The notes under the pieces: generated by a model
The model's database searches: none
What the model saw: the letters and a program-made list of their open reading frames with translations, nothing else
What the model was told of the DNA's origin: nothing
From: Clostridiales bacterium
Lineage (GTDB): Bacteria; Bacillota; Clostridia; Lachnospirales; Lachnospiraceae
NCBI GenBank assembly: GCA_012839295.1
Contig: DUNO01000032.1
Coordinates: forward strand, 1-60,256
Length of the DNA stretch: 60,256 nt
Reading direction: 5' to 3'
Part shown: positions 32,797-60,256 of the stretch, in pieces
Position numbering within the stretch: the first letter of the stretch is position 1
How the letters are laid out: each line of letters begins with the position of its first letter
Program-made: the position numbers and the translations under genes

Positions 32797-32892
32797 GATT
32801 CGGGTGCCAAAAGTCCTCATTACACTATAGCGATGAATATGCATGTATATATTCATCTCCATTGTCTAAATCCGGCTTTTGGCACTCGAATC
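32797..32892. repeat. Element D: short member of the palindromic repeat family
   Basis: GATTCGGGTGCCAAAAG (32797-32813) pairs with CTTTTGGCACTCGAATC (32876-32892), 16 of 17 with one G-T. Inside it GATGAATAT (32832-32840) pairs with ATATTCATC (32849-32857). The left part (GATTCGGG.GCCAAAAGTC, then ACTAT.GCG.TGAAT) and the right part (ATTCATCTC, then CTAAATC) match element B at 55089-55257, but the central core is missing. It sits between a binding-protein and a permease gene, where it may also act as an mRNA-stabilising stem. Confidence 0.75.
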
Positions 32893-43998: not shown

Positions 43999-44070
43999 TT
44001 ATAAAGAAGCCTCCTGCTTCCATTTTGAGCTTCGTTCATACTGTTCCAGGATCAGATCAATCCGTGTCAT
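43999..44070 (-). pseudogene. Truncated jetD remnant overlapping jetC
   Basis: In the minus-strand frame an ATG at 44070, inside the last codons of jetC, opens 23 codons ending at a TAA (43999-44001). The peptide ends ILEQYERSSKWKQEASL. JetD proteins of Wadjet systems begin with a similar short Ile/Leu-rich helix followed by YERS, and jetD normally follows jetC with such an overlap. No JetD sequence continues after the stop, and the GH43 promoter begins about 80 bp further on. I read this as the start of a deleted jetD gene. This rests on one short motif and gene order; it could be chance. Confidence 0.55.
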
Positions 44071-47000
44071 CTTCCTCATCCTCCTGTACCGTTAACAGGT
44101 CCGTAAATTCCTTCTTCTCAAATTCCTGGACAGAAATACGGTTCTTATTCGGATTTGCAAAAACAAAAGTTTTATCTACATTGTCCACATAGTTCTGGAT
44201 TTTATCATTGGTTGCACTGATAATTGCCTGGAAGCCCAGCTTACGGATCAGCCCGATACAGCTTCCCACCTTCTCCGCATCCATTTTTGAAAAAGCCTCA
44301 TCCAGTACAACCAGCCTTGGGGTCGGTCTCCGGCGTACATTGGACTTTAGGTTAATGCGGTAAACCTGGGCAAAGCTTGCAAGTAAGGCAACATAAAGGG
44401 GGTTCTGCCCTTCTCCACCGGAGTTTTTGGACAGCATCCGACTCAGCCTCATGGGAGGCATACCCTCCACTAACTGCTCCATATCAAAGGACAGGTAGGT
44501 TCTATAGTCTGCGTATTTCTCCATATTTGCCCTTGCCTCTTCCAGTGCCTTATTATCACAATTTTCCGGTGGCATGAATAATTCAATCAGCTCATTGATT
44601 AATTCACTGTAGTCCTTCTCATGCTGCAGGCTGAACATATCCATCTGGTTATTCATGTTGCCGGTGAGCTGGTGAGGATTGATCTCCAGGTTTTCATCCA
44701 TGAACATCTCGTAGAACTTGCCATCCTCCCCTTTATTTTTGGTGATGATGAATTTATATTTATCCTTACCGAAATCCAGCTGCGCCAGGATGCGGTTTAA
44801 GTCGTCCTTCTGCTGCATGACTTCCTTGATAGCATCCCGGATTTTATAGATAAAGTCTGTTTTAAAATGATAAATCGCCTGAAGTGCCTGCTCATTTGCC
44901 TTCTGGGTGAATTCCGCCAGCTTATCGCTGCTCAGGTTCTCCAGCAGCCCTTCATATTCCTTATTATCCTTACTTGTAATGGAGAAACCGCGGTAAGCAT
45001 AAGCATCATGGTATCTTTCCCTTCGCTTTAAAAGGGTAAAGAACTCCTCCTCCATTTGCTTTTCACCTTTTTGCTTTAAGTAAACCAGTTCGTTTCGGAT
45101 AGTGTCCGCCTTCTTATTCTCCTGTTCTTGCAGGAAAAGCCGGTAAGCCTCCTCCCGTAATGGGTCATGTTGGTAATTTGCCAGCTTTTCGTTAAGCTCT
45201 TCATTTAACTGGAGCATGCTCTCCTGGAAGCCCTTTATATCATTCTCTTTGGATTGCAAAGCAACGCTGGATTTCTCCTTTTGTTTACTCTTTGCCTCCA
45301 TGAGCTGCTCCAAAAGTAGCTTTTTTGCTTTCCATTCATCCACATTGAGCTGCTTTAGCTCATTGATTTTGCGTTTATATTCTTCCTTCTGCTGTTCCTT
45401 CTCAGGAATCTGCCTAAGGTGCTTTAACAGCTCTCCATAATATTCCGTATCATTGGAGAGGTATTCATAGTGGAGTAATCCTTCCGTCCTCCTAAGCTTC
45501 CGGTCAAGAGGCTCCTTTTCCAAGAGCAGCTCCCGCTGGCTCTGCTCCAGAAGCTTTCGTTTACGTTCAATGGCACTCCGGCCAATATAAGCCTCTTCCG
45601 TATAATTTCTTGGATTTAAATGCTGTAATTTATATCCCTGGTAAAGAACACAATCTGCCGTGATACCGCTTTTATTTTTACGGAGCTCCCAGGTGGAACT
45701 GCACTTGATAACCCCTCCCATAAGATAATCAATATAAGCCCTGGTGTAATCCGTCCCTGTCTCTATTTCCTCTGCAAGGGAATGAGGCAAAATGGGACGC
45801 GTATCCCGGAGTACTTTTTCTGTATCAATTACTGCAACACGGTAGTATTTCTTCGGGTCTAATTCTTTATAGATTTCCATCGCTGGCTTTGCATATTCCG
45901 GGGGAACAATAAGGTTTAGCTTATTATTTCCCATGTAGCCTTCCACCGCATTCAACCAGCGCTCATCCTTCACCTCGATGATATCTGCTAAAATATCTAC
46001 CTTGACCGGCAGCTCATATGCCTGCTCCAGCTCCTTTGTAATGTAATCCTTCGCCTCCAGCAGATAATTCGGATACGCCTTTTGTCCATTTTTCAAAAGG
46101 TTAATCTGCTTATTAATATCGGAGAGCTTCCTATTTAATTCACTTAAGGCCCGGGTTAATTCAACCTTATCCCCTTCCAGCTCCCTGCGTATCTGAGCCA
46201 GCTCCAATTTTATTGTATCTATATCGGCATAGGACACTTGACATGCGTCAAACTGTTCTATGAGGCTAGCCAGGGACGGATCTAAAAGCTCTGTCTCCAG
46301 CCATATCCTAAGGCCTGCTGCCACCTTATCATAAGCCGCTTTATTCCTATATAATAACTCCAGCATCTGGTTTAAGTTCCCCAGCTCCGCTTCCAGATGC
46401 TCGTACCCGCTGTTCTGGATTGCAAAGGCTACCTCGTCCCTTTGCTCCTGAAGCTTCTTAATCCCCTGCTCCAGCTCCTGGATGGTTAGGGCAAGTACCT
46501 TAATATCCTCCTCATAAGCCCCTTGTTGAAGGGTAAGCTTCTCAAGCCTCCCTTCAATTGCTGTAATATCGAGCTTATCAAGATTATACTGGTACTGCTC
46601 AAGCTGGTTTACATAAGCATGGTAGCGTCCATATTGCTCCTGAATATCAGTCAGTAAGCTAATCTCATTCTTCGTGTCCTCTAACCTGCGCTTTAATCTG
46701 GTGTATTGTGCAACGCTATCCTGCATATCCTCCATATGGATATCATTTTCCGTACAGATATAATTCTTAACAAAGTCCTCCAGCTTCATATCCATCTTAA
46801 AAGGAATCGCCTTCTTAAATAATGCCGGAAAATGCTTTGGATGCAATCCCCCAAAATAATTGCTGTAAAGCTCATTGCGGAATTTCTCATTGGTACGGCT
46901 TAGAAAGAAGTCTTCCCTGGAGTAGTTAGCCTGCAGATACTCTTTTAACTCACTGATGGAAAACACCTTCTCCCCATCACGGTAGCGGTTTGGTTCAAGC

Positions 47001-47416
47001 TCCCCTGCATGCCAGAAGAACATCCGGTTAACATCATTAACGGAGACATCCACATCAAAAATAATACCAAGGCTCTGGTATCTATGGGTCTCCGTGTCCT
47101 GGAACTCCAGGACAATAGTGGAAGAAAAGTTTTTATTTCTTAAATAGCTGATCTCATTATTCTCCTGAACCACCTTCATTCCCCGGAGATATTCAATCAG
47201 GGATCTGTCAGAATCCTCCTTCGCCGCCTTATTAAAAAAGCCCCGTCCGTTGGTATCCGCATACAGGACAATCTGCAAAGCATCCAAAACCGTTGATTTA
47301 CCGCTCCCGGAATGTCCTGTGAAGAAATTAATCTCATCATGAAAGGAAAGTAATTTCTCATTTATGTAGTGCCAGTTATTCAGACACATTTTCGAAAGTG
47401 CTTGATATCTGCCCAT
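44057..47416 (-). CDS. jetC: JetC, SMC/MukB-like ATPase of a Wadjet-type system
   Basis: This 1119-residue protein has an N-terminal Walker A (GHSGSGKST, 34-42), long coiled coils (about 200-460 and 620-880) separated by a hinge-like region, and at the C-terminus the ABC signature NSGGEGQ and Walker B VVLDEAFSKMD (D1039). It is of the MukB/JetC type. With JetA (kleisin-like) and JetB it would form a loop-extruding complex on DNA; in full Wadjet systems JetD then cuts circular plasmids. AGAGGAGGT eight bases before the ATG supports this start, which overlaps jetB by 41 bp. The C-terminus is strongly acidic (EDEEDDTD). Without a visible jetD its role is uncertain. Confidence 0.92.
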   Translation of the reverse strand: MGRYQALSKMCLNNWHYINEKLLSFHDEINFFTGHSGSGKSTVLDALQIVLYADTNGRGFFNKAAKEDSDRSLIEYLRGMKVVQENNEISYLRNKNFSSTIVLEFQDTETHRYQSLGIIFDVDVSVNDVNRMFFWHAGELEPNRYRDGEKVFSISELKEYLQANYSREDFFLSRTNEKFRNELYSNYFGGLHPKHFPALFKKAIPFKMDMKLEDFVKNYICTENDIHMEDMQDSVAQYTRLKRRLEDTKNEISLLTDIQEQYGRYHAYVNQLEQYQYNLDKLDITAIEGRLEKLTLQQGAYEEDIKVLALTIQELEQGIKKLQEQRDEVAFAIQNSGYEHLEAELGNLNQMLELLYRNKAAYDKVAAGLRIWLETELLDPSLASLIEQFDACQVSYADIDTIKLELAQIRRELEGDKVELTRALSELNRKLSDINKQINLLKNGQKAYPNYLLEAKDYITKELEQAYELPVKVDILADIIEVKDERWLNAVEGYMGNNKLNLIVPPEYAKPAMEIYKELDPKKYYRVAVIDTEKVLRDTRPILPHSLAEEIETGTDYTRAYIDYLMGGVIKCSSTWELRKNKSGITADCVLYQGYKLQHLNPRNYTEEAYIGRSAIERKRKLLEQSQRELLLEKEPLDRKLRRTEGLLHYEYLSNDTEYYGELLKHLRQIPEKEQQKEEYKRKINELKQLNVDEWKAKKLLLEQLMEAKSKQKEKSSVALQSKENDIKGFQESMLQLNEELNEKLANYQHDPLREEAYRLFLQEQENKKADTIRNELVYLKQKGEKQMEEEFFTLLKRRERYHDAYAYRGFSITSKDNKEYEGLLENLSSDKLAEFTQKANEQALQAIYHFKTDFIYKIRDAIKEVMQQKDDLNRILAQLDFGKDKYKFIITKNKGEDGKFYEMFMDENLEINPHQLTGNMNNQMDMFSLQHEKDYSELINELIELFMPPENCDNKALEEARANMEKYADYRTYLSFDMEQLVEGMPPMRLSRMLSKNSGGEGQNPLYVALLASFAQVYRINLKSNVRRRPTPRLVVLDEAFSKMDAEKVGSCIGLIRKLGFQAIISATNDKIQNYVDNVDKTFVFANPNKNRISVQEFEKKEFTDLLTVQEDEEDDTD

Positions 47417-48023
47417 CGGCGATTACCTCCTCTTCTTCCTGGTATTGTTCTATAATCGCTGCAATGGACTGGCTGTCCAAAAGAAGATTCACAGTGGGAT
47501 AAATGATAAACCTGGTATCCCCTTCCAAATCCCCCATCTCCTCTGCCACCTCAATTACCTGGTACTTTTTCAATGCCGCAATTGTCTTTCTCAGCTCAGT
47601 CGGAGATATCGATTTATTATTCCACAGACGGAACAGCTGAATTTTTTCATAAACCTCATTCAATGAAGTATAAACATGAATCGAACTGCTTGCCGTATTC
47701 ATCTGCTCATCAAAAATCAACTTCAAAAGCAGCAGAAAAATCGTCGTCAGCCTGCTCAGCTTATCTCCCTGCAGATTCTGGGTCACAATATGCATAATCC
47801 CATACTGCCTGTTCTCGATCAGGTCAATATCCCCAATCTTAAAATACTCCTTCAAGAAGTCCAAATGCCTTTCACAGGTCCGGTACAAACGGTTCGGTAA
47901 ATACCGTTCCGTTTTTTTATCATACTTTCTCTCCAGTAAGTAAGTCTGAAAATATAATGTCTTAATTACTTCCTTTAACTCATCCTTCTCCTCATCGAGA
48001 AGCTCGTTATAATATGGAAACAT
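47376..48023 (-). CDS. jetB: JetB, DUF4194 MukE-like subunit
   Basis: This 215-residue protein matches DUF4194, the JetB subunit: the N-terminal YLLERKYDKKTERYLPNRLY and the winged-helix segments LSRLTTIFLLLLKLIFDEQ and ELRKTIAALKKYQVIEV are typical. It would bridge the kleisin JetA and the ATPase JetC. I start it at the ATG at 48023, which has GGAAGG seven bases upstream; a longer frame would need a TTG. It overlaps jetC by 41 bp but is separated from jetA by 275 bp holding repeat element A, unlike the tight spacing usual in jet operons. Confidence 0.88.
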   Translation of the reverse strand: MFPYYNELLDEEKDELKEVIKTLYFQTYLLERKYDKKTERYLPNRLYRTCERHLDFLKEYFKIGDIDLIENRQYGIMHIVTQNLQGDKLSRLTTIFLLLLKLIFDEQMNTASSSIHVYTSLNEVYEKIQLFRLWNNKSISPTELRKTIAALKKYQVIEVAEEMGDLEGDTRFIIYPTVNLLLDSQSIAAIIEQYQEEEEVIADGQISSTFENVSE

Positions 48024-48057
48024 ATAAATTCCTTCCTCGTAACTCAAATTAAATTAG

Positions 48058-48300
48058 GATCCCCCACCAAAACCTTCTTCATACTAACAAACATTTGACC
48101 GTCAGGTCACAGGGTGCCGGATGTGAAATATTCTGTATTTCACACTAAATACTAAGTACTAACGCGGTGAATATGGGGGCTCTATATCCATCTGGGCGCA
48201 GACCGGGCCTCCCGTGATTGCCTGCACTTGGCGATCATGGGATGTTAAAGGCAAGCCCAGATGGATATAGAGCCCTCATATTCACCCCACAGCCCGGATC
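48058..48300. repeat. Element A: long palindromic repeat between jetA and jetB
   Basis: A 31-bp stem pairs 48166-48196 with 48256-48286 (30 of 31 plus one G-T). Between the arms lie the invariant blocks GGCGCAGACCGGGC (48195-48208), TTGCCTGCACTTGGC (48218-48232) and GATGTTAAAGGCAAGCC (48241-48257), with an inner hairpin CCCGTG/CATGGG. Left of the stem are the shared CCACCAAAA and ACTAACGCGGTGAAT blocks, here separated by about 70 extra bases that carry two small hairpins, including GTGAAATA/TATTTCAC (48123-48142). The right end overlaps the jetA stop codon. Confidence 0.9.
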
Positions 48301-49675
48301 ACACTATACTGTTTTTCTCAAACACCAGCTCCGGATAAGTATATTTCCCATTCGCAACCGTCCCCTTAGCCCCCGGTACCACATGGAAGGGACTTGTCCT
48401 GCGGATACTATAGTCATACGCCAAAATTAAAAGCTCAAACTCCTCATCCGTATTGATCGGATGCTCCTTTGTCCTAAAGGTTCCGTCTTCCATCTGGTCA
48501 AGGATGAAGGCTTCAATCTGGGCCTTGCTGTAACGGTTCTTATTGCGGTTAATACGCAGGATATCTTCCTTCGATAATTCCTCCTCCGTTTCAGCCTCCA
48601 CCTCCACCGTATCTTCAAATTGCCTGCGCTTTCCCCGCTTTTTATAAAAGGAATCCGGGGTAATTATGGTCGGATCGTTGATCAGGAGGGTATTTGATAT
48701 CTTGGAATAAAGCTCATTCTCCTGATTCCCTGACATAAGGTTCAACAGTGCAACCACATTGCCCTGCAGGCTGTCGTCACTGCTTAAAAGATATTCCAGC
48801 CGGCTTACCGTTGCCTTAATATATTTGCTATGCTCCGTATCGATATGGGAAATACGCTTTTCCATATTGATGATGCCCCGCTCTATCTCATAGATTATTT
48901 CAGCAAAATCCGCCTCAATATCCTCTTCCTTCCTGCCTTCCCCCATCATCCTGTTTTTTAGAAGGGTCAGACGGTTTTCGTCCTCACTGATGACGCGCAG
49001 CAGCCTTTTAATATCATTTTTATAAATATAGAAATTATCACTGGTCTTTAAAAGACTGTATTTCTTATTAACAATCGTCTCAACATAGACATTCAAATGC
49101 TCCAGTAATAAGTCCTCATAATTGTCCTTTTCCAAAAGCGCACCGAAGAACTGGTCCATGTTGTGGAGCATGTCCTGTAAGGAACGGTTCAATCTTGTAG
49201 TATTAATCTTCGCGGCATTAAGCAGCTCCATTCCAGCCTTCGTATCATAGTAAAAGGAATAAATATTCGTATAGACATTCTGTATGTATAAATCCTTGTC
49301 GTCCTCGCCAGGATTGAGCAGCCGTTTAATTGTCTCAATAAATAGGGCTGCATAGTCCGGAATAATAATATTTGACTTAAAGGCGCTGTAATCCTCCACC
49401 TTTTTAAGCCAGCTAAACCGGATCAGACGGTTCAGGATTTTTGTCGCCATCGGTTCCATCTGGTCCGCATCCTGCTCCTCATCATCGGCGGAGATATCCA
49501 CAATGCGGTCTGAAAATCGCTCCGCTATCAACTGGATACAGGTTTCCTTTGTGAGAAAGTAATCATTATATAAATATTCATCATAAATTGTCAACAGCGC
49601 TTCCATATAAATGTAGCGGTTCCGGGAACTGAATACGCTCCAGAACTGCTGCGGTAGTTTTAGTATTTCTTTCAT
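48299..49675 (-). CDS. jetA: JetA, kleisin-like subunit of a Wadjet-type system
   Basis: This 458-residue protein resembles the JetA family of type II Wadjet (DUF5716): N-terminal winged-helix region FWSVFSSRNRYIYMEALLTIYDEYLY, helical middle (about 120-330) and an acidic stretch followed by LRINRNKNRYSKAQIEAFILDQM near 385-407. It should be the MukF-like partner closing the JetC ring. It is first in the operon, with GGGAG close upstream of the ATG and a plausible promoter at 49739-49768. Its last codons run to the edge of element A, which supplies part of the TGA stop, so a slightly shortened C-terminus is possible. Confidence 0.88.
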   Translation of the reverse strand: MKEILKLPQQFWSVFSSRNRYIYMEALLTIYDEYLYNDYFLTKETCIQLIAERFSDRIVDISADDEEQDADQMEPMATKILNRLIRFSWLKKVEDYSAFKSNIIIPDYAALFIETIKRLLNPGEDDKDLYIQNVYTNIYSFYYDTKAGMELLNAAKINTTRLNRSLQDMLHNMDQFFGALLEKDNYEDLLLEHLNVYVETIVNKKYSLLKTSDNFYIYKNDIKRLLRVISEDENRLTLLKNRMMGEGRKEEDIEADFAEIIYEIERGIINMEKRISHIDTEHSKYIKATVSRLEYLLSSDDSLQGNVVALLNLMSGNQENELYSKISNTLLINDPTIITPDSFYKKRGKRRQFEDTVEVEAETEEELSKEDILRINRNKNRYSKAQIEAFILDQMEDGTFRTKEHPINTDEEFELLILAYDYSIRRTSPFHVVPGAKGTVANGKYTYPELVFEKNSIV

Positions 49676-49738
49676 TAGCTCTCCCTGGCAGCGTAGCTCT
49701 GCTATTTACTAACACTGCTTTTCTGCTTTTATCAATAT

Positions 49739-49768
49739 ATTTTAACATTTTATGACTAAATGAAGCAA
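49739..49768 (-). promoter_or_regulatory. Candidate promoter of the jet operon
   Basis: On the minus strand TTGCTT (49763-49768) and TAAAAT (49739-49744) with an 18-bp spacer lie about 65 bp before jetA. It is the best match in the 196-bp gap after the MerR gene. Confidence 0.45.
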
Positions 49769-49871
49769 TCATAATTTTTTAACACTAAGATGCATTCTAT
49801 CCCAGAGCCTAGATTTCAGCTCCGGCTTCTGTAAATCAAACAAAGCCATGCCAACCGGCTTACCCTTCCTG

Positions 49872-50591
49872 CTACCAGCCTTCATAGCGCTTCTCCTCAG
49901 CCTGTATGCAAAGCTTGTACAGCCCGGATATGCTCCCGATCTGCGCCCGGTTCCGCATTGCTAAATGCTTTTCAATGCCCGTAACAATGGCCGAAATTTT
50001 ATCCGTATCTTTAAAATCCAGTTGGTCCATTTCCTTACGGAGCTGTTCGACGGCGTATTTCTCACCTCTCGCACGCATTGCAAGCTTCATGGCCTGTATC
50101 ATTAATATCTCATCGATATGTGCCTGGGTAAAGGTTCTGTAATTGTTGGCTGCACAGCGGCTCGCCGAGATAAGGCCTACCTTGTCCCAGTACCTGATGG
50201 TGGAAGGTACAACGCCGGTTGCCTTACTGACTGCATCAATGGAAAGCTCCTTTGATGCAGCAGTTTTTTTCCCATGCAAAAAGCGTTCCCTGACCTGTCC
50301 ACAAATATATTTGTCATTTTGAAGTTCAGCCTGAGCCTTATTTGCTGCCCAAAGGGCTTCGTCCAGCTTATCTTCCATGACCAGCTTCAGCATGCCTGTA
50401 ATCTCTGATAGTGTAAATCCCTGCATCATTTCCCTGATACAGATAAAGTAAGCGATATGCTCGTCGGTATAGATCCGGTACCCGTTAGGCGAACGCATAA
50501 CAGGCGGAACCATTCCAAGGTCTTCATAATGTCTGAGGGTCGTAGTGCTTATTCCAAATTTTCTTGCTATATCAATGGGGCGTGCCGGCAT
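49872..50591 (-). CDS. MerR-family regulator with two tandem DNA-binding domains
   Basis: This 239-residue protein has two MerR winged helices: IDIARKFGISTTTLRHYEDLG at about 6-26 and IDAVSKATGVVPSTIRYWDKVG at about 117-138, each followed by its wing (NGYRIYTDEHIAYFICI and NNYRTFTQAHIDEIL). Coiled-coil helices follow each domain. There is no evident effector-binding domain beyond this. It diverges from the UvrA-like gene 50743-53187, whose promoter it probably controls along with its own. A MerR-type operator (ACCCTAAGGT) sits inside its own promoter. Two-domain MerR proteins are uncommon; one copy may recognise each half of an extended site. Confidence 0.9.
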   Translation of the reverse strand: MPARPIDIARKFGISTTTLRHYEDLGMVPPVMRSPNGYRIYTDEHIAYFICIREMMQGFTLSEITGMLKLVMEDKLDEALWAANKAQAELQNDKYICGQVRERFLHGKKTAASKELSIDAVSKATGVVPSTIRYWDKVGLISASRCAANNYRTFTQAHIDEILMIQAMKLAMRARGEKYAVEQLRKEMDQLDFKDTDKISAIVTGIEKHLAMRNRAQIGSISGLYKLCIQAEEKRYEGW

Positions 50592-50626
50592 GTCCGCTGT
50601 CCTCCCTGCTAAAAGAATTTTTATAC

Positions 50627-50655
50627 ATTATAACACTACCCTAAGGTTTCTGCAA
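50627..50655 (-). promoter_or_regulatory. Autoregulated MerR promoter
   Basis: On the minus strand TTGCAG (50650-50655) and TATAAT (50627-50632) have a 17-bp spacer that holds the imperfect palindrome ACCCTAAGGT (50638-50647), the typical placement of a MerR-family site between the -35 and -10. The divergent UvrA-like promoter must lie in 50660-50740 (TATACT near 50705), with no good -35 seen. Confidence 0.65.
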
Positions 50656-50742
50656 TAAACCTGCCTATTTCCGGGAGATATCCTCGATTATTGCATTAAT
50701 GTTATATACTATAAGTAAGAGGACAAAAAGAAGGAGGTTTCT

Positions 50743-53187
50743 ATGTCTAACATCTTAATCAGCGGTGCCAAAGAAGGTAACCTAAAAAACATTTCACTCG
50801 AGATACCCCGGAATAAGCTGGTGGTTTTTACCGGGCTGTCAGGCTCCGGAAAATCCACCTTAGTCATTGATGTACTTTTTAATGAATGCCAGAGGCAATA
50901 CCTGGAGGCCCTGTCCCTGCAGGGAATCCATAAGCCTAAGGTGGACCGTATACGGGGAGCTTCCCCGGCCATTGTAATTTCCCAGACCGACGCAAACAAA
51001 AACCCCCGCTCAACCGTAGGAACAATGACGGACGTCTATACAGACCTGAGAATGATATATGAAAAGCTGGGTGTCCGAAAATGCCCCTATTGCGGGGAGA
51101 TTATCCCAGCAGCGGACTGCAAGGAAGAAACAGAAGTGATTGATAATGATTTTTATGTCTATATGTACTGTTGCCAATGCGGCAGACGGATGGATAAGGT
51201 CACCCGCACACATTTTTCCTTCAATACAAGGGAGGGTGCATGTCCCACCTGTGAAGGACTGGGCAAAATTCATTCCATAAAAAAAGAGCAGACCGTGAAT
51301 GAAGGGCTATCACTAGAGGATGGCGCAGTGAGCTATTGGGAAAAGCAATATGGAGCTTATCAGCTTTCCATATTATACGCCGCCTTCAAATATTACGGCC
51401 TTCCCGTCCCTGAGGGTATTCCCGTAGGACAGTTCAGTGATTTGCAAAAATCTATTTTATATGATGGCATTGAAAGCGGCCTGGTAAAAATCAATTTTCC
51501 TGACCAAAAGCCGCCTAAGACCGTTGCAGCCGGAAGATTTGAAGGCGTACTTCCAATCTTATGGAGGCGCTTATCGGAAAAAGACGGGGACACGACACAG
51601 CTGGAGGGGTATTTCGATATAGTGGAATGTCCTGACTGCGAGGGGGAAAGGCTCTCCGGGCTGAGCCGGGGCATTACTGTAAATGGTACCCGCCTGCCCC
51701 AGCTGTCCCGGTATTCCTTGGAAAGATTGTATGAATGGATGGAGGAATTAACTGCCTCACTGACAGAAAAGCAGGTGGAATTAGTACAGGCATATTTGCT
51801 GGATATAAAAACAAAGCTCACCCGGTTCATCAATGTAGGAATCGGCTATCTCTCCATTGACCGTCAGATTGTTACCCTGTCCGGAGGAGAGCTGCAAAGG
51901 TTAAGGCTTGCAGCAGTTCTTGACTCGGAGCTGTCCGGTGTAATCTATATCCTGGACGAGCCGACAGCCGGACTTCACCCTAAGGATACTGCAGGGCTGA
52001 TAACCATACTCCAAAAATTGCGTGACCTTGGAAACACGGTGCTTGTCATCGAGCATGATATCGATGTTATAACAATTGCAGACTATATTATTGACATCGG
52101 CCCCGGCTCCGGGAAATATGGCGGTGAGGTGGTTGCAACCGGAACCTTGGAGGAAATCAAGGGTCAGGAGAGGTCTGCCACCGGCAGCTGCCTCCGGGAT
52201 CCCCACCCCGGCAAAACAGCGTTCAGGAAAGCAACCGGCATGATCCAGCTCCAGGATGCGGATAAGTTCAACCTAAAAAATATCAGTACCTCCATCCCTG
52301 CCGGCTGCATAACTGCCGTTACAGGGCCTTCCGGTTCCGGTAAGTCCACCCTGATCTTTGAGGTACTGGCAAAATACAATCATCCTTCCCCCCACAACCG
52401 GGTATCAGGGCTGGAAGCTTTTGATAAGGTGGTTGAAATCGGGCAGGCCTCCATTACAAAAATGAAGCGCTCCAATATAGCCACCTATTCCGAAGTCTAT
52501 TCAGAAATCAGGAGCGTCTTTGCAAAAACAGATGCGGCAAAGAATGCCGGATTGACGGCAAAGCATTTCTCCTTCAATACCCCCGGCGGCAGATGCGAGA
52601 ATTGCGAAGGCTTGGGGTACGTTGACAGCAATATGCTGTTCTTTGCCAACACCCAGGTCATATGTCCGGTCTGTAACGGCAACCAGTTTAACAGCAGTGT
52701 ATTGTCAGTGAAATATGAGGATCTCTCCATAAAGGATGTCCTAAACCTTTCTGTGGAGGAAGCGGTCAATTTCTTTGCCAGACAGCCAAAGATCATACGG
52801 ATTTTAAAGCTCCTCCTGGATGTGGGCCTTGGATACCTGCAGCTTGGGCAGACCCTTACTACCTTATCCGGCGGCGAGGGCCAGCGGTTAAAGCTTGCGA
52901 AGGAATTGATAAACAGCCCCGGCAAACAAAATCTCTATCTGATGGACGAGCCTACGACGGGCCTGCATCCAAAGGATACCGAACATTTTCTCCTTCTGCT
53001 GGACCGGATGGTGGATGCGGGCAATACGATTGTTGTCGTGGAGCATAACCAGCAGATGATCCGAAGCAGTGACTGGATCATTGACCTTGGCCCGGAAGGG
53101 GGAGAAAAGGGCGGTAAAATCATGTTTGAAGGGACACCGGCAGAAATACTCCAGGAAAAGAACAATGTGACAGCAAAGTATCTGTGA
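50743..53187 (+). CDS. Short UvrA-like ABC ATPase (UvrA2 type)
   Basis: This 814-residue protein has two ABC modules: Walker [11 protein letters not shown] (31-40) and [10 protein letters not shown], signatures [12 protein letters not shown] and [12 protein letters not shown], and Walker [13 protein letters not shown] and [12 protein letters not shown]. Zinc-finger cysteines are CPYC and CQCG (114-147), CPTC (167-170) and [17 protein letters not shown] comes at about residue 158, about 90 residues earlier than in standard UvrA, so the UvrB-binding domain is missing. Such proteins are linked to resistance to DNA-binding drugs rather than to excision repair with UvrB. Control by the divergent tandem MerR regulator fits an inducible resistance role. 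Confidence 0.9.
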
Positions 53188-53196
53188 CATAAAAAA

Positions 53197-53223
53197 CCCC
53201 GCGAATATCAGGAATTCGCGGGG
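53197..53223. terminator. Bidirectional terminator between uvrA-like and cysK genes
   Basis: CCCCGCGAAT (53197-53206) pairs with ATTCGCGGGG (53214-53223). On the minus strand TTTTTT follows, making a strong cysK terminator. It also lies 10 bp past the UvrA-like stop. Confidence 0.92.
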
Positions 53224-53241
53224 GCTATTGATTTCAACGAA

Positions 53242-54174
53242 TTATTCAGCAAATAACGGGGTGGATAAATATCTCTCACCGGTATCAGGAAGCACAACAA
53301 CGATTGTCTTTCCCTTATTCTCCGGGCGTTTTGCAAGCTCAGTGGCTGCCCACAGGGCTGCACCTGAGGAGATTCCAACTAACAAACCTTCTGTTTTAGC
53401 AATTTCCTTGCCGACTGCAAAAGCATCCTCATTCTTAACCTTGATGATCTCATCAAACACACTGGTATTTAATACCTGTGGTACAAAGCCAGCCCCAATA
53501 CCCTGGATTTTGTGGGGGCCTGCCTTTCCTTCTGATAAAACAGGGGAATCAAAGGGCTCTACTGCTATTACCTTAACATCAGGGTTCTGTGATTTTAAAT
53601 ATTCACCCGCACCTGTAATGGTGCCGCCAGTACCAATACCGGCTACAAAGAAATCAACCTTTCCTTCCGTGTCCTCCCAGATCTCAGGACCTGTGGTCGC
53701 TTTATGGACTTCAGGATTTGCCGGATTATCAAACTGCCCCGGAATAAAGGAATTCGGAATCTCCTGCGCAAGCTCATTTGCCCTTGCGATTGCTCCCTTC
53801 ATGCCCTTGGCACCTTCTGTCAATACCAGCTCTGCCCCGTAAGCCTTTAACAGGTTCCTTCTCTCCACGCTCATGGTCTCAGGCATTGCCAGGATTAAAC
53901 GGTAGCCTCTTGCCGCAGCAATGGAAGCCAATCCGATGCCTGTATTACCGCTGGTTGGCTCGATGATTACGGAACCCTCCTTCAGGATACCCTTTGCTTC
54001 AGCATCCTCGATCATTGACTTCGCAATTCTATCCTTCACACTTCCTGCCGGATTGTAGTACTCTAATTTTGCTATTACCTTTGCTTCAAGACCATGCTTC
54101 TTCTCATAGTTGGATACTTCTAATAAAGGGGTCTTTCCTACTAACTCTGTTAAACTCTTATAAACCTTTGCCAT
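53242..54174 (-). CDS. cysK: Cysteine synthase A (O-acetylserine sulfhydrylase)
   Basis: This 310-residue PLP enzyme has the lysine K47 in NPAGSVKDR, the substrate loop [12 protein letters not shown] and the PLP phosphate-binding [15 protein letters not shown]. It makes cysteine from O-acetylserine and sulfide. I start it at the ATG at 54174, which has GGAGG eight bases upstream; a longer frame from 54210 lacks this. It diverges from the Rrf2/CymR-like gene across a region with four repeats. In Bacillus CysK also binds CymR and turns it into an active repressor, so a regulatory role here is plausible (inference from that family). Confidence 0.96.
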
Positions 54175-54233
54175 GCTTATTTCCTCCGTTCGATTAATTA
54201 TATTTATCATATATGATTAATATGTTTGTTATT

Positions 54234-54262
54234 ATCATATTACGTAATTCCCAGAATGTCAA
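54234..54262 (-). promoter_or_regulatory. cysK promoter
   Basis: On the minus strand TTGACA (54257-54262), a 17-bp spacer and TATGAT (54234-54239). The expected start point is near 54227, about 50 bases before the ATG. The repeats at 54276-54364 lie directly upstream. Confidence 0.85.
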
Positions 54263-54275
54263 TAGGAAATTAGAA

Positions 54276-54364
54276 AATTTATCTATATAACAACAAAAAA
54301 TTTTATCCATATGGCTCCATTGCAATTTTATCTGTATAACCCGGGAATAATTTATCCATAACAG
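54276..54364. repeat. Four tandem repeats between cysK and the Rrf2 gene
   Basis: AATTTATCTATATAAC (54276-54291), AATTTTATCCATATGGC (54299-54315), AATTTTATCTGTATAAC (54324-54340) and AATTTATCCATAACAG (54349-54364) share AATTT(T)ATCYRTAT. The starts are 23, 25 and 25 bp apart, so all would face a similar side of the helix. The array lies between the two divergent promoters and is a good candidate binding array for the Rrf2/CymR-like regulator. Confidence 0.75.
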
Positions 54365-54415
54365 TATTTACCGAATACGCTTGTTTTATATACCTGCCAC
54401 GGATATATTTGTTGA

Positions 54416-54444
54416 TTGACAATTCTATTATTTTCCGATATCAT
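54416..54444 (+). promoter_or_regulatory. Promoter of the Rrf2/CymR-like gene
   Basis: TTGACA (54416-54421), a 17-bp spacer and TATCAT (54439-54444), about 35 bp before the ATG at 54483. Confidence 0.8.
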
Positions 54445-54482
54445 AAATACATATAAAATCAGTATGAAATGGAGGTGTTATT

Positions 54483-54929
54483 ATGAGATTGTCCGCAAAG
54501 GGCCGCTATGCCCTGGCCGCTACCACCAGTATGGCAACACAGCATAATAGCAATGAATATATCACATTAATCAGTATTTCCGAGAAACTTGGTATTTCAA
54601 AAATATATCTGGAGCAGGTATTTTCATTATTAAAGCACGCTGGAATCGTCAATTCCATCAAGGGCTCCCAGGGAGGCTACCAACTATCCAGATCCCCCAG
54701 CCAAATAACGGTTTACGATATCTTATCCGCGATTGAAACCTCACTGTTCGAAGGTACCGAGGAGACGGTAAATGACACTGCCCCTGATATAGAGGCGGCC
54801 TTAAAGGTTAAGATTTTTGAACCCCTGGATCATACAATCGAGGAATTCTTAAAGCTGACCTCCCTGTATGACCTGGTATCCGAAGCCGAAAAGCACAAAG
54901 GCAGTGACGGGTTTATGTTTTTTATCTAA
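54483..54929 (+). CDS. Rrf2-family regulator, CymR-like, without cysteines
   Basis: This 148-residue protein has the Rrf2 winged helix (MRLSAKGRYALAATTSMA, ISEKLGISKIYLEQVFSLLK and the wing GSQGGYQLSRSP). It contains no cysteine at all, so it cannot hold the Fe-S cluster of IscR/NsrR and fits the CymR group, which controls cysteine and sulfur genes. It diverges from cysK, whose product may be its partner. Targets probably include cysK, itself and perhaps the aprAB-cysDN operon. GGAGG precedes the ATG by seven bases. Confidence 0.92.
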   Translation: MRLSAKGRYALAATTSMATQHNSNEYITLISISEKLGISKIYLEQVFSLLKHAGIVNSIKGSQGGYQLSRSPSQITVYDILSAIETSLFEGTEETVNDTAPDIEAALKVKIFEPLDHTIEEFLKLTSLYDLVSEAEKHKGSDGFMFFI

Positions 54930-55088
54930 ATAATGCAAATAAATGCACCTCAAACCTTAGATGCCCCCCTTGTGGCAGGCAGTTAAAAGAATAAAACTGT
55001 ATATCACAAGGAGGCGCATATCAAGATAGATAAATCTATGTGTCTGGAGGTGTATTTTATTACAAAAAATTATATTTCTAATATTATG
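54930..55088. other. Intergenic stretch with a stem-loop after the Rrf2 gene
   Basis: CCTTGTG (about 54968-54974) pairs with CACAAGG (about 55007-55013) around an inner CAGTT/AACTG stem. No U-tract follows on the plus strand, so it is a weak terminator at best. A 25-codon frame beginning near 55038 runs into element B and has no support as a gene. Confidence 0.35.
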
Positions 55089-55257
55089 ATTCGGGCACCA
55101 AAAGTCTTTCTATAACTATCGCGGTGAATGCGAGTGCATATATATGCATATGGCGCAGACCGGGCATCGTATGGTTGCCTGCACTTGGCAATCATACGAT
55201 GTTAAAGGCAAGCCAGATGCATGTATATGCACTCGCATTCATCTCACAGCCTAAATC
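55089..55257. repeat. Element B: palindromic repeat downstream of cysN
   Basis: A 31-bp stem pairs 55123-55153 with 55213-55243 (28 Watson-Crick, two G-T, one mismatch). The invariant blocks are GGCGCAGACCGGGC (55152-55165), TTGCCTGCACTTGGC (55175-55189) and GATGTTAAAGGCAAGCC (55198-55214). The inner hairpin is CGTATG/CATACG, where elements A and C have different but still paired bases. The left flank GATTCGGGCACCAAAAGTC matches element D. It lies between the convergent Rrf2 and cysN genes. Confidence 0.9.
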
Positions 55258-55291
55258 TCCCCTAAATCCCTTTTTAAATCGGCTGCCGCCT

Positions 55292-56992
55292 TTAAATAAT
55301 CCAGAAATTATTATTAAAGATAATAGTCCGGTAGGTTTCAAACCTTAACCATTTATTTGCCACCGCAGCGGCCTCCTGCTCCCCTAAGGCCTTGGCATCA
55401 TGCAGGAACACTGCCAATTCAGTCTCCGAGGTGACCTTTATGGCAAAGCCCTTCTCATCAATGACGGGGTAGCCTGCATATTGGTATTCCTGCAGCGGCT
55501 TTATTTCCTCGATCCTCTTATTCCTAACCGTAACCGCGACTTCATCGCGGACAGCCAGCACATCAAAATGCTCCGGGTAGTGGTAGCTCTCCCCTTTCAC
55601 GGGGATCTCGTCACCAACAGTATAGACAGGATGCTCCTTCGTCTGTTTTGAGATATTGGAGCTTTCCAGGTTATAGTAGAATTCTTCAAAGATGCTGCCC
55701 CTGGCTGATAAATCCTGATACCGGAAGGTAGCATTTTCCCCTCGGAGGGCATCTCCTGCCCCAAGCTCCTCCACCACACCGCAGGCAGAGGTCATATTCG
55801 TTATCCTGTCAATTAAAACCAGCTCTCCCAGGGTTTTATGTTTTTTAAATTGATCCGCTACAATCTTCTCTGATAAGGTCAACTCACAGACCCCAATCTC
55901 ATTCTTCACCAACCGATCCGTATTCCGGTGTTCGCCCGTATTGACATCCACTTTATATTTAATTCTTGTCACAACGCCTGGAATAAGCTTTGTCCCCAGC
56001 TTTACAAAATAATGCTTATCCGGTGTCAGCTCGCTGTCATCCATCCATAAAAGGGACACGGTCAATTGCTTAGTGGTGGTCAGATCCGTCCCCTTGGTAA
56101 GCACACAGCCCCTGGAAACATCCACTTCCTTATTTAGCTGGATTGTAACCGCCTGGCCCCTCTTTGCTTTTTCCTCTTCCCTGTCTGTGATATGGATACT
56201 CTTTATTAGAGCCTTTTCATTACTTGGAAGCGCCGTGATCTCATCACCGGCAGCAATGCTGCCCGCTTCAATCTGTCCCTGGAAGCCGCGGAAGCTATGG
56301 TTTGGCCTGCAGACCCTTTGTACCGGCAGATAAAAGCCTTCTTCCCCGTCACTTAGGATATCCACCTGCTCCAAATGGGTTAAAAGTGCTTCCCCCTCAT
56401 ACCAGGGAATATTCTCTGACTTTGTCGTCAGATTATCCCCTTCGGTAGCCGAAAGCGGTATGATCTTGACATCCTGCAGGGAAAGCTCCTCTACCAACCC
56501 ATCAATCTGCTGCTTAATCTGGTCAAAGCGTTCCTCACTATATCCGATTAAGTCCATTTTATTTACTGCAAAGACGAAATGCCGGATTCCCATGAGGGAG
56601 CAAATCCTGGCATGGCGTCTGGTCTGGAGCAGTACCCCCTGCTTCGCATCCACAAGAATAATTGCAAGATCCGCAAAGGAAGCTCCTACTGCCATGTTCC
56701 TGGTATATTCCTCATGTCCCGGCGTATCCGCCACGATAAAGCTCCGGTGGTTCGTGGTGAAATAACGGTATGCCACATCAATTGTAATCCCCTGCTCACG
56801 TTCTGCCATAAGGCCATCCAGCAATAAGGAGTAATCGATTGCCCCGTCACGGCTGCCTACCTTACTGTCCAGCTCCAGCGCCCTGGCCTGGTCCGCATAC
56901 AGCAGCTTGGAATCGTATAAAATATGTCCGATCAGAGTGGATTTTCCATCATCTACACTGCCGCAGGTAATAAATTTTAATAAGCCCTTCAT
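55292..56992 (-). CDS. cysN: Sulfate adenylyltransferase subunit 1 (GTPase)
   Basis: This 566-residue protein has the GTPase motifs GSVDDGKST (about 11-19), DTPGHEEYTRNM and NKMDL, followed by two beta-barrel domains as in CysN. It powers activation of sulfate to APS by CysD through GTP hydrolysis. The C-terminal extension of about 100 residues beyond the EF-Tu-like part has no kinase (CysC) motif, so this is not the CysNC fusion. It overlaps cysD by one base (TAATG) and is last in the operon. Confidence 0.95.
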   Translation of the reverse strand: MKGLLKFITCGSVDDGKSTLIGHILYDSKLLYADQARALELDSKVGSRDGAIDYSLLLDGLMAEREQGITIDVAYRYFTTNHRSFIVADTPGHEEYTRNMAVGASFADLAIILVDAKQGVLLQTRRHARICSLMGIRHFVFAVNKMDLIGYSEERFDQIKQQIDGLVEELSLQDVKIIPLSATEGDNLTTKSENIPWYEGEALLTHLEQVDILSDGEEGFYLPVQRVCRPNHSFRGFQGQIEAGSIAAGDEITALPSNEKALIKSIHITDREEEKAKRGQAVTIQLNKEVDVSRGCVLTKGTDLTTTKQLTVSLLWMDDSELTPDKHYFVKLGTKLIPGVVTRIKYKVDVNTGEHRNTDRLVKNEIGVCELTLSEKIVADQFKKHKTLGELVLIDRITNMTSACGVVEELGAGDALRGENATFRYQDLSARGSIFEEFYYNLESSNISKQTKEHPVYTVGDEIPVKGESYHYPEHFDVLAVRDEVAVTVRNKRIEEIKPLQEYQYAGYPVIDEKGFAIKVTSETELAVFLHDAKALGEQEAAAVANKWLRFETYRTIIFNNNFWII

Positions 56993-57891
56993 TAGAAATA
57001 TCCCTCCCTCTTTCTTCTTTCCATACTTCCGGCCGCCTCATTGTCAATCACACGGGTTGTCCTCTCGGAGGAAACCGCACTCAAGGTTTCCTCGATAATC
57101 TCATCCAGGGTCACCGCTTCCGATTCATTGCCGCCAGTCAAGGGATAGCAGCCCAGGGTGCGGAAACGTACCTTTTTGTATTCGATTTTCTCCCCAGGCT
57201 TTAATTTTAACCTGTCATCATCCACCAGGATAATATTACCGTCACGGTAAATAACCGGGCGCTTCTTGGCATAATATAAGGATACAATATCAATGTTTTC
57301 ACGCTTAATGTACTGCCAGATATCCTTCTCCGTCCAATTGGAAATAGGGAATACGCGGATGCTTTCCCCCTTATTAATCTTTGTATTATAAAGCTTCCAC
57401 ATCTCCGGCCTCTGGTTTTTCGGATCCCAGGCATGGGTCTCATTGCGGAAGGAAAAGATCCGTTCCTTTGCCCTGGACTTTTCCTCATCGCGGCGGCCGC
57501 CGCCAAAGGCTGCCGTAAAGCCGTATTTATCCAGCCCCTGCTTCAAGGCCTGGGTTTTCATAATATCCGTGTAGGCGGAGCCATGGTCAAAGGGGTTGAT
57601 CCCCTGGGCAATCCCTTCCTCATTGCTGTAAACCAGCATTTCAATCCCCAACTCCCTTGCTTTCCGGTCGCGGAATTCGATCATCTCCCGGAATTTCCAG
57701 GTGGTATCGATATGCATAAAGGGAAAGGGCGGCTTTTCCGGATAAAATGCCTTCATCGCAAGATGCAGCATTACCGAGCTGTCCTTGCCAATGGAATACA
57801 GCATTACCGGTTTCTCACATTCGGCGGCAACCTCACGGATAATGTATATCGCCTCCGCTTCCAATTCATCAAGATGTGTCATATTACTCAT
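56992..57891 (-). CDS. cysD: Sulfate adenylyltransferase subunit 2
   Basis: This 299-residue PP-loop protein has the ATP-binding [18 protein letters not shown], and the conserved [19 protein letters not shown] and [10 protein letters not shown] segments. With CysN it makes APS from ATP and sulfate. I start it at the ATG at 57891 with CAGGGG seven bases upstream; a longer frame from 57936 begins without a ribosome site. It lies 57 bp after aprB and just before cysN. Confidence 0.95.
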
Positions 57892-57948
57892 TCTTATACC
57901 CCTGCCTTTCCATTTTGGTATCCTATTCTTAGTCATAACTTTCCCGCT

Positions 57949-58263
57949 TTAGTACTGGTTTGAATCTTTACGGTTGATATCAATAACCAAAGCTTCACCG
58001 TCACTCTTTTCTACCTGCCAATGAACCAGGTCACCTTCGATTTCAACGGTCAGCCTGCTTCCCATGCCCCCGATATCGGCTCCCAGATAGAGGGCTATTG
58101 CTTTATAAGCGCATTCCTTCAGACAGGAGGAGCATCCCCAGCAGTCCTTCGGATATTTGATCCAGGCCTTTTTATCCTCATTTAGCTTAATCAGGTTTCC
58201 CGGACAGACCTTCAGGCATTTTCTGCAGCCGACGCATTTGCCCTGGTTAATTGCTATGCTCAT
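57949..58263 (-). CDS. aprB: Adenylylsulfate reductase beta-like ferredoxin subunit
   Basis: This 104-residue protein has two 4Fe-4S motifs: C10, C13, C16, C20 and C41, C44, C47, C51. The C-terminal half is a short beta region as in AprB, but shorter than dissimilatory AprB of about 150 residues. It overlaps the flavoprotein gene by 17 bp, so the two are coupled. It should pass electrons to AprA, reducing APS to sulfite and AMP. It is named by homology and context; a generic ferredoxin paired with another flavoprotein is less likely beside cysDN. Confidence 0.85.
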   Translation of the reverse strand: MSIAINQGKCVGCRKCLKVCPGNLIKLNEDKKAWIKYPKDCWGCSSCLKECAYKAIALYLGADIGGMGSRLTVEIEGDLVHWQVEKSDGEALVIDINRKDSNQY

Positions 58264-60031
58264 AAATATCCCTCCGTCCTACCAGTTCCCGGTAAATGAT
58301 CTGCAGTTCTCCTTCCACCAGCCTGGAATTCACGTATTTTAACCATTCTCCACTTTTTGCGGGATAGTCCAGGTTCTCTGCGAAGCTGTGCCATCTGGTT
58401 TCCTTCCTTGCCCGTAGATGTGCAATTACTGATTTACATACCACAAGCCTTTCCTTCAGCTCATAGACGAACATCAATTCATGCATATCCTCCGCTTTTA
58501 AATGTCCGCTTAAGCCCATAATCCGGTCTATCTTTTCTTCAGCAAGCTTAAGCTGCTTCTCATTAAATTGATAGTTCGTGCTGATTCCACCGGCATAGGT
58601 ATCCATGACCTTCTGCATTGCTTCCTCCAATTGCTCCGTGGTGAAAACCGGATCAGGCTCATCAAGAATTTGCCCAATTTCCTTTACCTTTGCCGCAATC
58701 AGCATGTCTTCTATGCGCCGGCTTAATAAGGATCCCTCCTTTTCCTTCCTTAGGTCCTCCAGAATGGCAAGGGCGGCAATCTCTCCTTCCACCAGGGCTC
58801 CGGTAACGTATTTCTGGGGGCATCCTCCTGCCACATCACCGGCCGCATACAGACCCTTAATTGTAGTCCTCCGCTTTGTATCGACCCAATACCCGCTTGC
58901 CGTATGGCCTCCCACGATATATGGCTCAGTGCCCTCGATTTCAACGTTCTGCTTACTTGGATCCTTACCATCTTCAATCCATTTTAAGGTCTGGCTTGGC
59001 GCCATATTAAGGTAGGCTTTCTTTAGCTCCTCGTCCTGGGCCGGGGTAATGCCTTCCGTCCGCAGGTAGCAGGGTCCCCTGCCCTCCTGGTTTTCCCGTA
59101 CCGTGCCATAGACACGTTCCGAGGTGGTGATGCCATACCTTGTTTCATATACCTCACCCTTCGCATTCACCTGCTTCGCACCGACACCCTGGGCTATGGT
59201 TCCGGTGGGCGCAATGGTGTCCTTACAGCGAAGTGCAATAAACCTCATCTCAAAGGTAGTCATCTCTGCCCCTGCCCGGATTCCCATGGCATATCCGGCT
59301 CCCGTGTTAAAGGGGGGATACCACAGCTTATGCCTTGAAAAACCGGGATTGTTAGGCCGGTAAAGCCCTGCCGCCCCTCCGGTTGCACAGATTACCCTTT
59401 TTGCCCTGATCTCATATAGGATGGGCTCCTCCACATGAATGGCAAAGGCACCGTAGATGCGGTTATCCTTTGCAATATAGTCGATAACATTCACCTGATT
59501 CAGGATCTCTACTTTTTTCAGGCCTTCCACCGCCGCTGCCAGGATTGGCTTTATGTTCTCCCCGTTAATCTTAATATTACGGTTGCCCCTCGCCACATAT
59601 TCACCGTTTTCATCCTTTAAAATCACAAGGCCAAGCTCCTCCAGCTTTTTCGTTACCCGGTTCAGACCCTCGGACATCGTCAGGAGCAAATCCTCCCTCA
59701 CAATACCGCCGGCATCCTTCTTTGCATAATCAACATAATTGTCCGGCGTTCTTCCCTTTACGATGTAGGCATTAATTGCATTAACACCTGCGGCCAGGCA
59801 GCCGCTCCTTTTAATGTTTGCTTTCTCCGCTATAATAATGGATGCATCCGAGTGTTCGCGAAGGGTCAGGGCTGCATAGCAGCCTGCGGTACCACCTCCA
59901 ACTATCAGCACATCGGCTTCAAGCTTCCTTAGTTCTATCCGTCTCCCTGACTCTGCCTCCGTATTTCGCTCCGTCCTTTCTCTTAGCCTTATTTGCTTTA
60001 TTTCTTGCTTTACCTCTATTTCCTTCTTCAT
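58247..60031 (-). CDS. aprA: Adenylylsulfate reductase alpha-like flavoprotein
   Basis: This 594-residue FAD protein of the fumarate reductase/AprA superfamily has the FAD-binding DVLIVGGGTAGCYAALTL at about 40-57 and GLYAAGDVAGGCPQKYVTGALVEG near 400. The C-terminal helical domain is present. The first 38 residues are unusually charged (Lys/Glu/Arg-rich) and precede the core. GGAGGAGG lies right before the ATG. Next to an AprB-like ferredoxin and cysDN it is probably the assimilatory APS reductase used by some clostridia in place of CysH. Element C lies 115 bp upstream of its start. Confidence 0.88.
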   Translation of the reverse strand: MKKEIEVKQEIKQIRLRERTERNTEAESGRRIELRKLEADVLIVGGGTAGCYAALTLREHSDASIIIAEKANIKRSGCLAAGVNAINAYIVKGRTPDNYVDYAKKDAGGIVREDLLLTMSEGLNRVTKKLEELGLVILKDENGEYVARGNRNIKINGENIKPILAAAVEGLKKVEILNQVNVIDYIAKDNRIYGAFAIHVEEPILYEIRAKRVICATGGAAGLYRPNNPGFSRHKLWYPPFNTGAGYAMGIRAGAEMTTFEMRFIALRCKDTIAPTGTIAQGVGAKQVNAKGEVYETRYGITTSERVYGTVRENQEGRGPCYLRTEGITPAQDEELKKAYLNMAPSQTLKWIEDGKDPSKQNVEIEGTEPYIVGGHTASGYWVDTKRRTTIKGLYAAGDVAGGCPQKYVTGALVEGEIAALAILEDLRKEKEGSLLSRRIEDMLIAAKVKEIGQILDEPDPVFTTEQLEEAMQKVMDTYAGGISTNYQFNEKQLKLAEEKIDRIMGLSGHLKAEDMHELMFVYELKERLVVCKSVIAHLRARKETRWHSFAENLDYPAKSGEWLKYVNSRLVEGELQIIYRELVGRRDIYEHSN

Positions 60032-60145
60032 ACCCTCCTCCTTATATTAACACCACTTATCTCCACCTAAATATCCCATTCTTTTGCATGAAGGTCACTA
60101 GGTAGCCCAAAGTCGATAGATACACTTCCCACCGCCGTCCCCAAT

Positions 60146-60256
60146 GATCCGCCCAACAAAAGGCTTCCTTAAACTAGCGCGGTGAATCTGAGTGTAGATA
60201 TCCACTTGGGCGCAGACCGGGCTTCCCATGGTTGCCTGCACTTGGCAATCATGGGA
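60146..60256. repeat. Element C: palindromic repeat upstream of aprA, cut by the window end
   Basis: The left flank GATCCGCCCAACAAAAGGC and ACTAGCGCGGTGAAT match elements A and B. GGCGCAGACCGGGC (60209-60222) and TTGCCTGCACTTGGC (60232-60246) are present without change. The inner hairpin is CCCATG/CATGGG. The left stem arm starts at 60181; its partner would lie beyond the window. Confidence 0.85.

What the first reader, a model, noticed from the sequence alone, without database searches (positions are those of the whole stretch)
48058..60256. A family of interspersed palindromic elements with a fixed core and covarying stems
Elements A (48058-48300), B (55089-55257) and C (60146-60256) share three identical blocks: GGCGCAGACCGGGC, TTGCCTGCACTTGGC and, where visible, GATGTTAAAGGCAAGCC. 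The roughly 31-bp outer stem differs almost completely between A and B yet stays paired in both. The inner hairpin reads CCCGTG/CATGGG, CGTATG/CATACG and CCCATG/CATGGG in the three copies. Paired changes around an unchanged core point to selection on structure, as in a structured RNA or a non-autonomous mobile palindrome. I do not recognise it as a named RNA class.
Basis: seen in the sequence. Interest (0 to 1): 0.9.

Follow-up and report, generated by a model that had tools for sequence, protein, structure and literature searches.

The report
Mobile hairpin repeats with fixed core
This bacterial genome is sprinkled with short DNA hairpins that all carry the same core on arms that differ from copy to copy but always pair; they look like an undescribed family of small mobile elements that settle just behind genes in several related groups of bacteria.

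Summary
The window's genome (genus taken as Herbinix) holds 81 stretches of this element, some being halves cut by contig ends. In 53 full copies 97.9% of stem cells pair and 27 of 43 pairs change on both sides; no shuffle of 500 matches this. Element C continues as predicted on another contig. Four Rfam scans give no match. In Herbinix the hairpin sits in a MITE-like chassis of about 190-220 bp with terminal inverted repeats; 5 of 5 alignable sites in a sampled relative lack it. The core motif GACCG...WAAGGC recurs on unrelated arms in two other genera of the family and in two other families, one with matches in 12 of 22 genomes. In G000 and G012 copies lie mostly antisense, close behind a stop codon. 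Best reading: a new family of non-autonomous mobile hairpins whose folded core is what is kept. The mobilising enzyme was not found. Whether the paired changes reflect selection or template switching is open: the wobble-pair strand test is strong by cells, not by independent events.

The parts
48058..48087 (+). Element A, left chassis arm with decayed terminal inverted repeat (GATCCCCCACCAAAAC...)
   Evidence: read by eye against the left-arm consensus of other copies
48166..48197 (+). Element A, left arm of outer stem
   Evidence: inverted repeat I2, 32 nt, 97%
48198..48208 (+). Element A, conserved 5' side of internal loop GCAGACCGGGC
48210..48242 (+). Element A, inner hairpin with TGCACTT loop
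48243..48254 (+). Element A, conserved 3' side of internal loop TGTTAAAGGCAA
48255..48286 (+). Element A, right arm of outer stem; the stop codon of the JetA-family gene lies at 48299-48301 on the - strand
55085..55102 (+). Element B, left terminal inverted repeat TATGATTCGGGCACCAAA
   Evidence: 3-mismatch hit
55125..55154 (+). Element B, left arm of outer stem
   Evidence: inverted repeat I3, 30 nt, 93%
55155..55211 (+). Element B, core: internal loop, inner hairpin, internal loop
55212..55241 (+). Element B, right arm of outer stem
60146..60162 (+). Element C, left chassis arm with terminal inverted repeat GATCCGCCCAACAAAAG
60181..60211 (+). Element C, left arm of outer stem
60212..60256 (+). 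Element C, core, cut by the contig end; the rest lies at the start of contig C17 (L059)
32797..32892 (+). Short relative: same terminal inverted repeats, core missing, arms collapsed to a short hairpin

Best explanation
It is a family of non-autonomous mobile hairpins. Each copy is one long hairpin: an outer stem of roughly 20-32 bp whose sequence is largely free but pairs, a fixed internal loop (GACCG on one side, WAAGGC on the other), and an apical hairpin that differs between species. In Herbinix it rides in a MITE-like chassis of about 190-220 bp with terminal inverted repeats GATTCGnnnGnCAwAAGTC and probable 7-8 bp target duplications. SHOWN: dispersal, pairing with a fixed core, chassis ends, sites lacking it in relatives, and in G000 and G012 a preference for the gap behind a stop codon with the core strand antisense to the gene. 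INFERRED: it is moved in trans by a transposase not found here; the folded single-stranded core is what a protein or the mobilisation step must recognise; the arms only present the core, so they drift as pairs, perhaps helped by template switching between arms; and sense copies are purged or never made.
For: 81 stretches in one genome. Pairing 97.9%, 27 of 43 pairs doubly changed, 0/500 shuffles, slid controls 27-43% paired. Second family: 98.7% pairing, 16 of 18 pairs doubly changed, core near-fixed (28 of the 63 matches were aligned). In 50 of 60 copies the left arm fits its own right arm at least as well as any other. Core columns invariant across species and families. Both terminal repeats in 14 of 59 copies; duplication signal z=3.2 at 7 bp, z=3.5 at 9 bp with shifted boundary. 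No core or terminal repeat at 5 of 5 aligned G012 sites, element A's included; further empty sites. Chassis copies without the core. Tandem-gene orientation antisense:sense 36:6 in G000 and 20:4 in G012. In one search all 9 intact copies between convergent genes have the right end nearer a stop codon (13-75 bp against 131-392 bp); B (47 against 190) and the decayed copy L080 agree.
Against: No autonomous partner: no facing terminal-repeat pair 1-3 kb apart in the hit lists of 18 genomes; the IS256 and ISL3 loci examined lack the ends; other transposase families were not tested. The duplication signal is the best of 42 length/shift settings on 14 copies, one of which (L023) is doubtful. Three sites are occupied in both of two species by different subtypes (for one only the left flank aligned), and one G483/G503 locus keeps two copies although flanks are only 68-74% identical: old, host-kept copies fit that as well. 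I did not search systematically for terminal repeats in the second family and did not see any. G027+G031 show no orientation bias (3:2); the second family, clusters included, gives 13:6.
Confidence: 0.6

Rival explanations
1. A structured regulatory RNA domain (3' UTR or antisense RNA) that spread long ago and is now kept at each site for the host. The fixed internal loop is a protein- or ligand-binding motif and the paired changes are ordinary compensatory evolution.
For: In G483 cores average 97% identity between 14 copies while arms average 54%. A G483/G503 locus keeps two copies around the same gene despite 68-74% flank identity. Cell-level G-U excess over A-C on the + strand in stems, 133:23 against 31:34 in unpaired columns. 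The + strand folds more stably in 53 of 53 copies. Around B 4 promoter-like sites against 1.4 (sd 1.0) in shuffles, one of them reading on the + strand into B.
Against: The + strand is mostly antisense to the neighbouring genes. By distinct events the G-U excess (38:17) does not differ from unpaired columns (15:9), p=0.61. The second family shows 6:5; G031 (5:6) and G004 (7:11) show no excess. On the other strand, 41 left flanks show no -10 enrichment at promoter spacing. No expression data.
Confidence: 0.25
2. Perfect palindromes kept by DNA mechanics alone. Template switching and cruciform processing copy one arm onto the other and sometimes flip or delete the core; no structure is selected.
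For: Core flipped relative to its flanks in 3 of 81 stretches. Core-less collapsed copies. Almost no wobble pairs in the second family (4 of 504 cells). Mechanism described in PMC8794818 (abstract and opening text).
Against: It does not explain a loop motif held nearly invariant across genera and families while arms diverge. In 47 nearest-neighbour pairs the paired changes are mostly single base pairs (99 of 111 runs), with 1 run of 3 or more against 1.3 expected; single-pair switching is not excluded.
Confidence: 0.13
3. REP/RAYT or IS200/IS605-type hairpins moved by a Y1 HUH transposase.
For: Dispersed palindromes with single-strand folding potential; Y1 matches in 18 of 34 genus genomes, 5 of the 10 carriers among them.
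Against: No Y1_Tnp match in G000 itself, nor in G004, G016, G027, G031, which carry the element; non-carriers have it as often, 13 of 24.
Confidence: 0.02

Closest known systems
bcr1-bcr3 repeats of the Bacillus cereus group
   Same: Dispersed intergenic repeats called MITE-like, often in UTRs or operon spacers (PMC3446304, passages)
   Different: No sequence comparison with them was run; a fixed internal loop across families, hypervariable paired arms and antisense stop-codon placement are, as far as I recall, not described for bcr repeats
ERIC/RU-1, RUP, Correia/NEMIS and similar bacterial MITEs
   Same: Small non-autonomous mobile repeats with structure motifs (PMC2229807, abstract and section list)
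   Different: Other hosts and ends; that their stems are sequence-conserved while here arms vary and the loop is fixed is recalled, not computed
REP/BIME palindromes with RAYT transposases
   Same: Many dispersed palindromes, often 3' of genes (recalled)
   Different: Much longer hairpin; no Y1 transposase match in the own genome
Rfam structured RNA families
   Same: A conserved internal loop inside covarying helices
   Different: No match of the element at gathering score, and only sub-threshold hits, in four scans

Membership tests
Bacterial MITE (non-autonomous DNA transposon) | Terminal inverted repeats | tested here: met
   both ends found in 14 of 59 G000 copies with 3 or fewer mismatches each; many ends decayed; clearer in relatives
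Bacterial MITE (non-autonomous DNA transposon) | Target-site duplication | tested here: inconclusive
   7 bp z=3.2, 9 bp with boundary shifted z=3.5, best of 42 settings on 14 copies
Bacterial MITE (non-autonomous DNA transposon) | Multi-copy, with orthologous sites lacking it | tested here: met
   81 stretches; 5 of 5 syntenic G012 sites lack the core; further empty sites, but also three occupied in both species
Bacterial MITE (non-autonomous DNA transposon) | Autonomous relative with the same ends | tested here: inconclusive
   none in the terminal-repeat hit lists, the 20 loci or the IS256/ISL3 loci; other transposase families not tested
REP/RAYT or IS200/IS605 | Y1 HUH transposase in the host genome | tested here: not met
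   0 matches in G000
Named Rfam RNA | Covariance-model match at gathering score | tested here: not met
Integron attC site | Conserved R box GTTRRRY (recalled) | tested here: not met
   GTTAAAG occurs only in the G000-like subtype; relatives read GGTAAGG or GGAAAGG
Structured functional RNA | Strand-specific selection and transcription | tested here: inconclusive
   wobble test strong by cells, not by events; no expression data

The most novel reading that the evidence does not exclude
A previously unrecognised structured nucleic-acid element, spread over at least three families of one order of Clostridia, in which a fixed internal-loop core (GACCG...WAAGGC) acts as a single-stranded recognition or catalytic module. 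Its arms, apical domain and transposon chassis are interchangeable, and it is placed antisense behind stop codons by a dedicated mechanism.
Probability: 0.3. Interest if true: 0.86.

Novelty: new variant of a known kind. Interest (0 to 1): 0.66.

Why it matters
It is a very clean case of a fixed core on freely changing but paired arms, repeated in separate bacterial families. That makes it a natural test of how paired changes arise, by selection or by template switching. If the core is a recognition module, it points to an unknown mobilising or RNA-binding protein. It also warns that covariation alone can mislead when long DNA palindromes are involved.

Tried and rejected
Rfam at gathering and relaxed thresholds: only sub-threshold matches on the element. 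Y1/RAYT: absent from the own genome. IS256 and ISL3 as mobiliser: few copies, those seen lack these ends, and G012, G024 and G170 have no match. Outward promoter in the left arm: no -10 enrichment at promoter spacing. Intrinsic terminator at element B: none found. Orientation set by replication rather than genes: mixed; three convergent-gene copies follow the gene end against GC skew, others fit both or neither (its 20 regions were picked from copies that are not antisense tandem). Arms taken from pre-existing target hairpins: rejected, because arms share a consensus. Element A core against plasmids and element B against phages: no match; four viral-contig pattern hits do not match model R1. 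Multi-base template-switch blocks: not above expectation. Rows dropped or not seen: 8 of the 94 pattern hits were not fetched; 5 of 86 examined lacked the motif; L080, L018, L023, L086 and L050 were left out of alignment A1; long-apical G004/G010 copies were left out of A4; A5 used 16 of 20 candidates; A6 used 28 of 63 matches. One of the 37 G012 rows is a coding stretch, not an element; without it the counts are 48 G-U and 5 A-C in 36 copies. Literature searches listed nothing on this element; the library lacks most subscription papers.
Full report
WHAT IS THERE. Elements A, B and C are as described. A and B read: GGTGAAT-type arm, GCAGACCGGGC, a 13-bp inner hairpin with loop TGCACTT, TGTTAAAGGCAA, and the complementary arm. 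The core 15-mer occurs 94 times in the own genome at 0-2 mismatches, with 7 for the reversed-pattern control. I fetched and examined 86 of the 94: 81 carry the motif (58 full, 23 partial) and 5 do not. Many partials are cut by contig ends, so distinct insertions number fewer than 81. Element C continues on contig C17: that right arm fits C's left arm best among the left arms compared, and the outer flanks of both halves match one G012 locus.

STRUCTURE. On 53 full copies (A1), RNAalifold gives 50 pairs, 27 with double-sided changes. With 43 helix pairs fixed, 97.9% of cells pair against 85.6% in shuffles; 27 pairs and 245 cells change on both sides (shuffled means 15.0 and 58.3); 0 of 500 shuffles reach any of the five measures; slid versions pair in 27-43%. 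In 50 of 60 copies with both arms, the left arm matches its own right arm at least as well as any other copy's. Mismatch counts over 57 copies are (outer stem; inner hairpin).

CHASSIS AND MOBILITY. Beyond the hairpin lie end arms with inverted repeats. Both were recognised with 3 or fewer mismatches in 14 of 59 copies (191-220 bp long in 13, 261 in the flipped copy L023), with a duplication signal strongest at 7-9 bp (z up to 3.5, the best of 42 settings). Relatives show the ends more clearly as GATTCGAGTGTCAtAAGTC. Copies with ends but no core exist (L093; window 32797-32892), and in G004 and G010 the same ends enclose a different structured interior. In 3 of 81 stretches the core is inverted relative to its flanks, and 1 is unclear. 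In 556,847 bp of relative G012, 5 syntenic sites were found and none holds a core or terminal repeat, element A's site among them. Half of those regions were picked from contigs known to carry elements or ends elsewhere. Against simple recent mobility, a comparison restricted to element-bearing loci found three sites occupied in both species by different subtypes, as well as three empty ones.

PLACEMENT. In G000, by simple ORF calling, the gene to the right runs towards the element in 47 of 58 full copies; tandem pairs are antisense:sense 36:6 (p=3e-6; flipped copies counted by their core). G012 gives 20:4 on 36 copies, G027+G031 3:2 on 16, and G029 2:1 on 4. The second family gives 13:6 among 38 copies, clusters included. 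In one search all 9 intact copies between convergent genes have the right end nearer a stop. Element A sits between a JetA-family gene and a DUF4194 gene, directly at the stop of the former; these look like jetA and jetB of a Wadjet operon.

DISTRIBUTION. Model R1 finds it in 10 of 99 genomes (own included), all among the 34 of the same genus. Model R2 (37 copies from eight same-genus genomes) finds 3 of 299 family genomes, two of them other genera, and 3 of 295 order genomes, two of them in other families. These searches used strict filters and scored 12 candidates a genome, so they are lower bounds. Model R3, which included two G483 copies, then matches 12 of 22 genomes of G483's family, up to 19 copies each and often clustered. 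Four of the 12 have only weak matches (E above 1e-4); those that I read show the same motif. In 28 copies of that family the core is near-fixed and 16 of 18 stem pairs change on both sides, with 98.7% pairing. In G483, arms of 14 copies average 54% identity and cores 97%; two G404/G483 loci with flanks 97-99% identical have identical arms.

WHICH STRAND, AND WHY DO ARMS COVARY. By cells, stems hold 133 G-U and 23 A-C mismatches (+ strand) against 31:34 for the matching transitions in unpaired columns, p=2e-8. Related copies share mismatches, however: counting each column and type once gives 38:17 against 15:9, p=0.61, and private changes are 21:12. G012 (48:5 in 36 copies), G027 (18:1) and G029 (8:1) agree with the excess; G031 (5:6), G004 (7:11), G006 (2:2), G010 (2:1) and G024 (2:2) and the second family (6:5) do not. 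The folded strand is therefore not established. Paired changes between nearest neighbours are mostly single pairs (99 of 111 runs), with no excess of long blocks. Template switching is a published route to such changes (PMC8794818, abstract and opening text).

MECHANISM. I favour a non-autonomous mobile hairpin whose folded core is recognised while the arms merely pair. Dispersal, structure, core constancy and placement are shown. The transposase, the recognised strand and the reason for the antisense bias are inferred. No transposase with these ends was found in what was searched, and Y1 transposases are absent from the own genome.

COMPARISON. Works like: bacterial MITEs and the bcr repeats of Bacillus cereus. 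Member of: no named family tested. It differs in the fixed loop motif across families, the hypervariable arms and the stop-codon placement.

Noticed in passing
window 44057-49675: A likely Wadjet defence operon: JetA and DUF4194 matched in Pfam; a 1119-aa ORF (44057-47416), not scanned, follows. Element A lies between the first two genes.
   Followed up: partly
window about 48092-48144; L064 right flank; L314: A second repeat-like stretch (CATTTGACC...GCCGGATGTGAAAT...) sits inside the left chassis arm of element A and similar words recur near other loci.
   Followed up: no
window 42012-42117: Another 45-nt inverted repeat with a 16-nt gap, 89% complementary, without this family's core.
   Followed up: no
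L252, L253, L259, L266 around position 3000: A different structured palindrome (GAGCAACTGTATGAAGTCGTTGGTACTTAGGTCC...) uses the same terminal repeats; full or partial matches in 18 of 61 genomes.
   Followed up: partly
L240, L241, L246, L258, L260: In G004 several copies appear nested in yet another inverted-repeat element (AAAAAGTCCCTTTCATAG... / TTTAGGTAGC...).
   Followed up: no
L395, L397: Local clusters of copies about 150-250 bp apart, in both orientations, in genome G503.
   Followed up: partly
L373 and L377: Two inverted copies flank the same region in two distant species, with different arms in each.
   Followed up: partly
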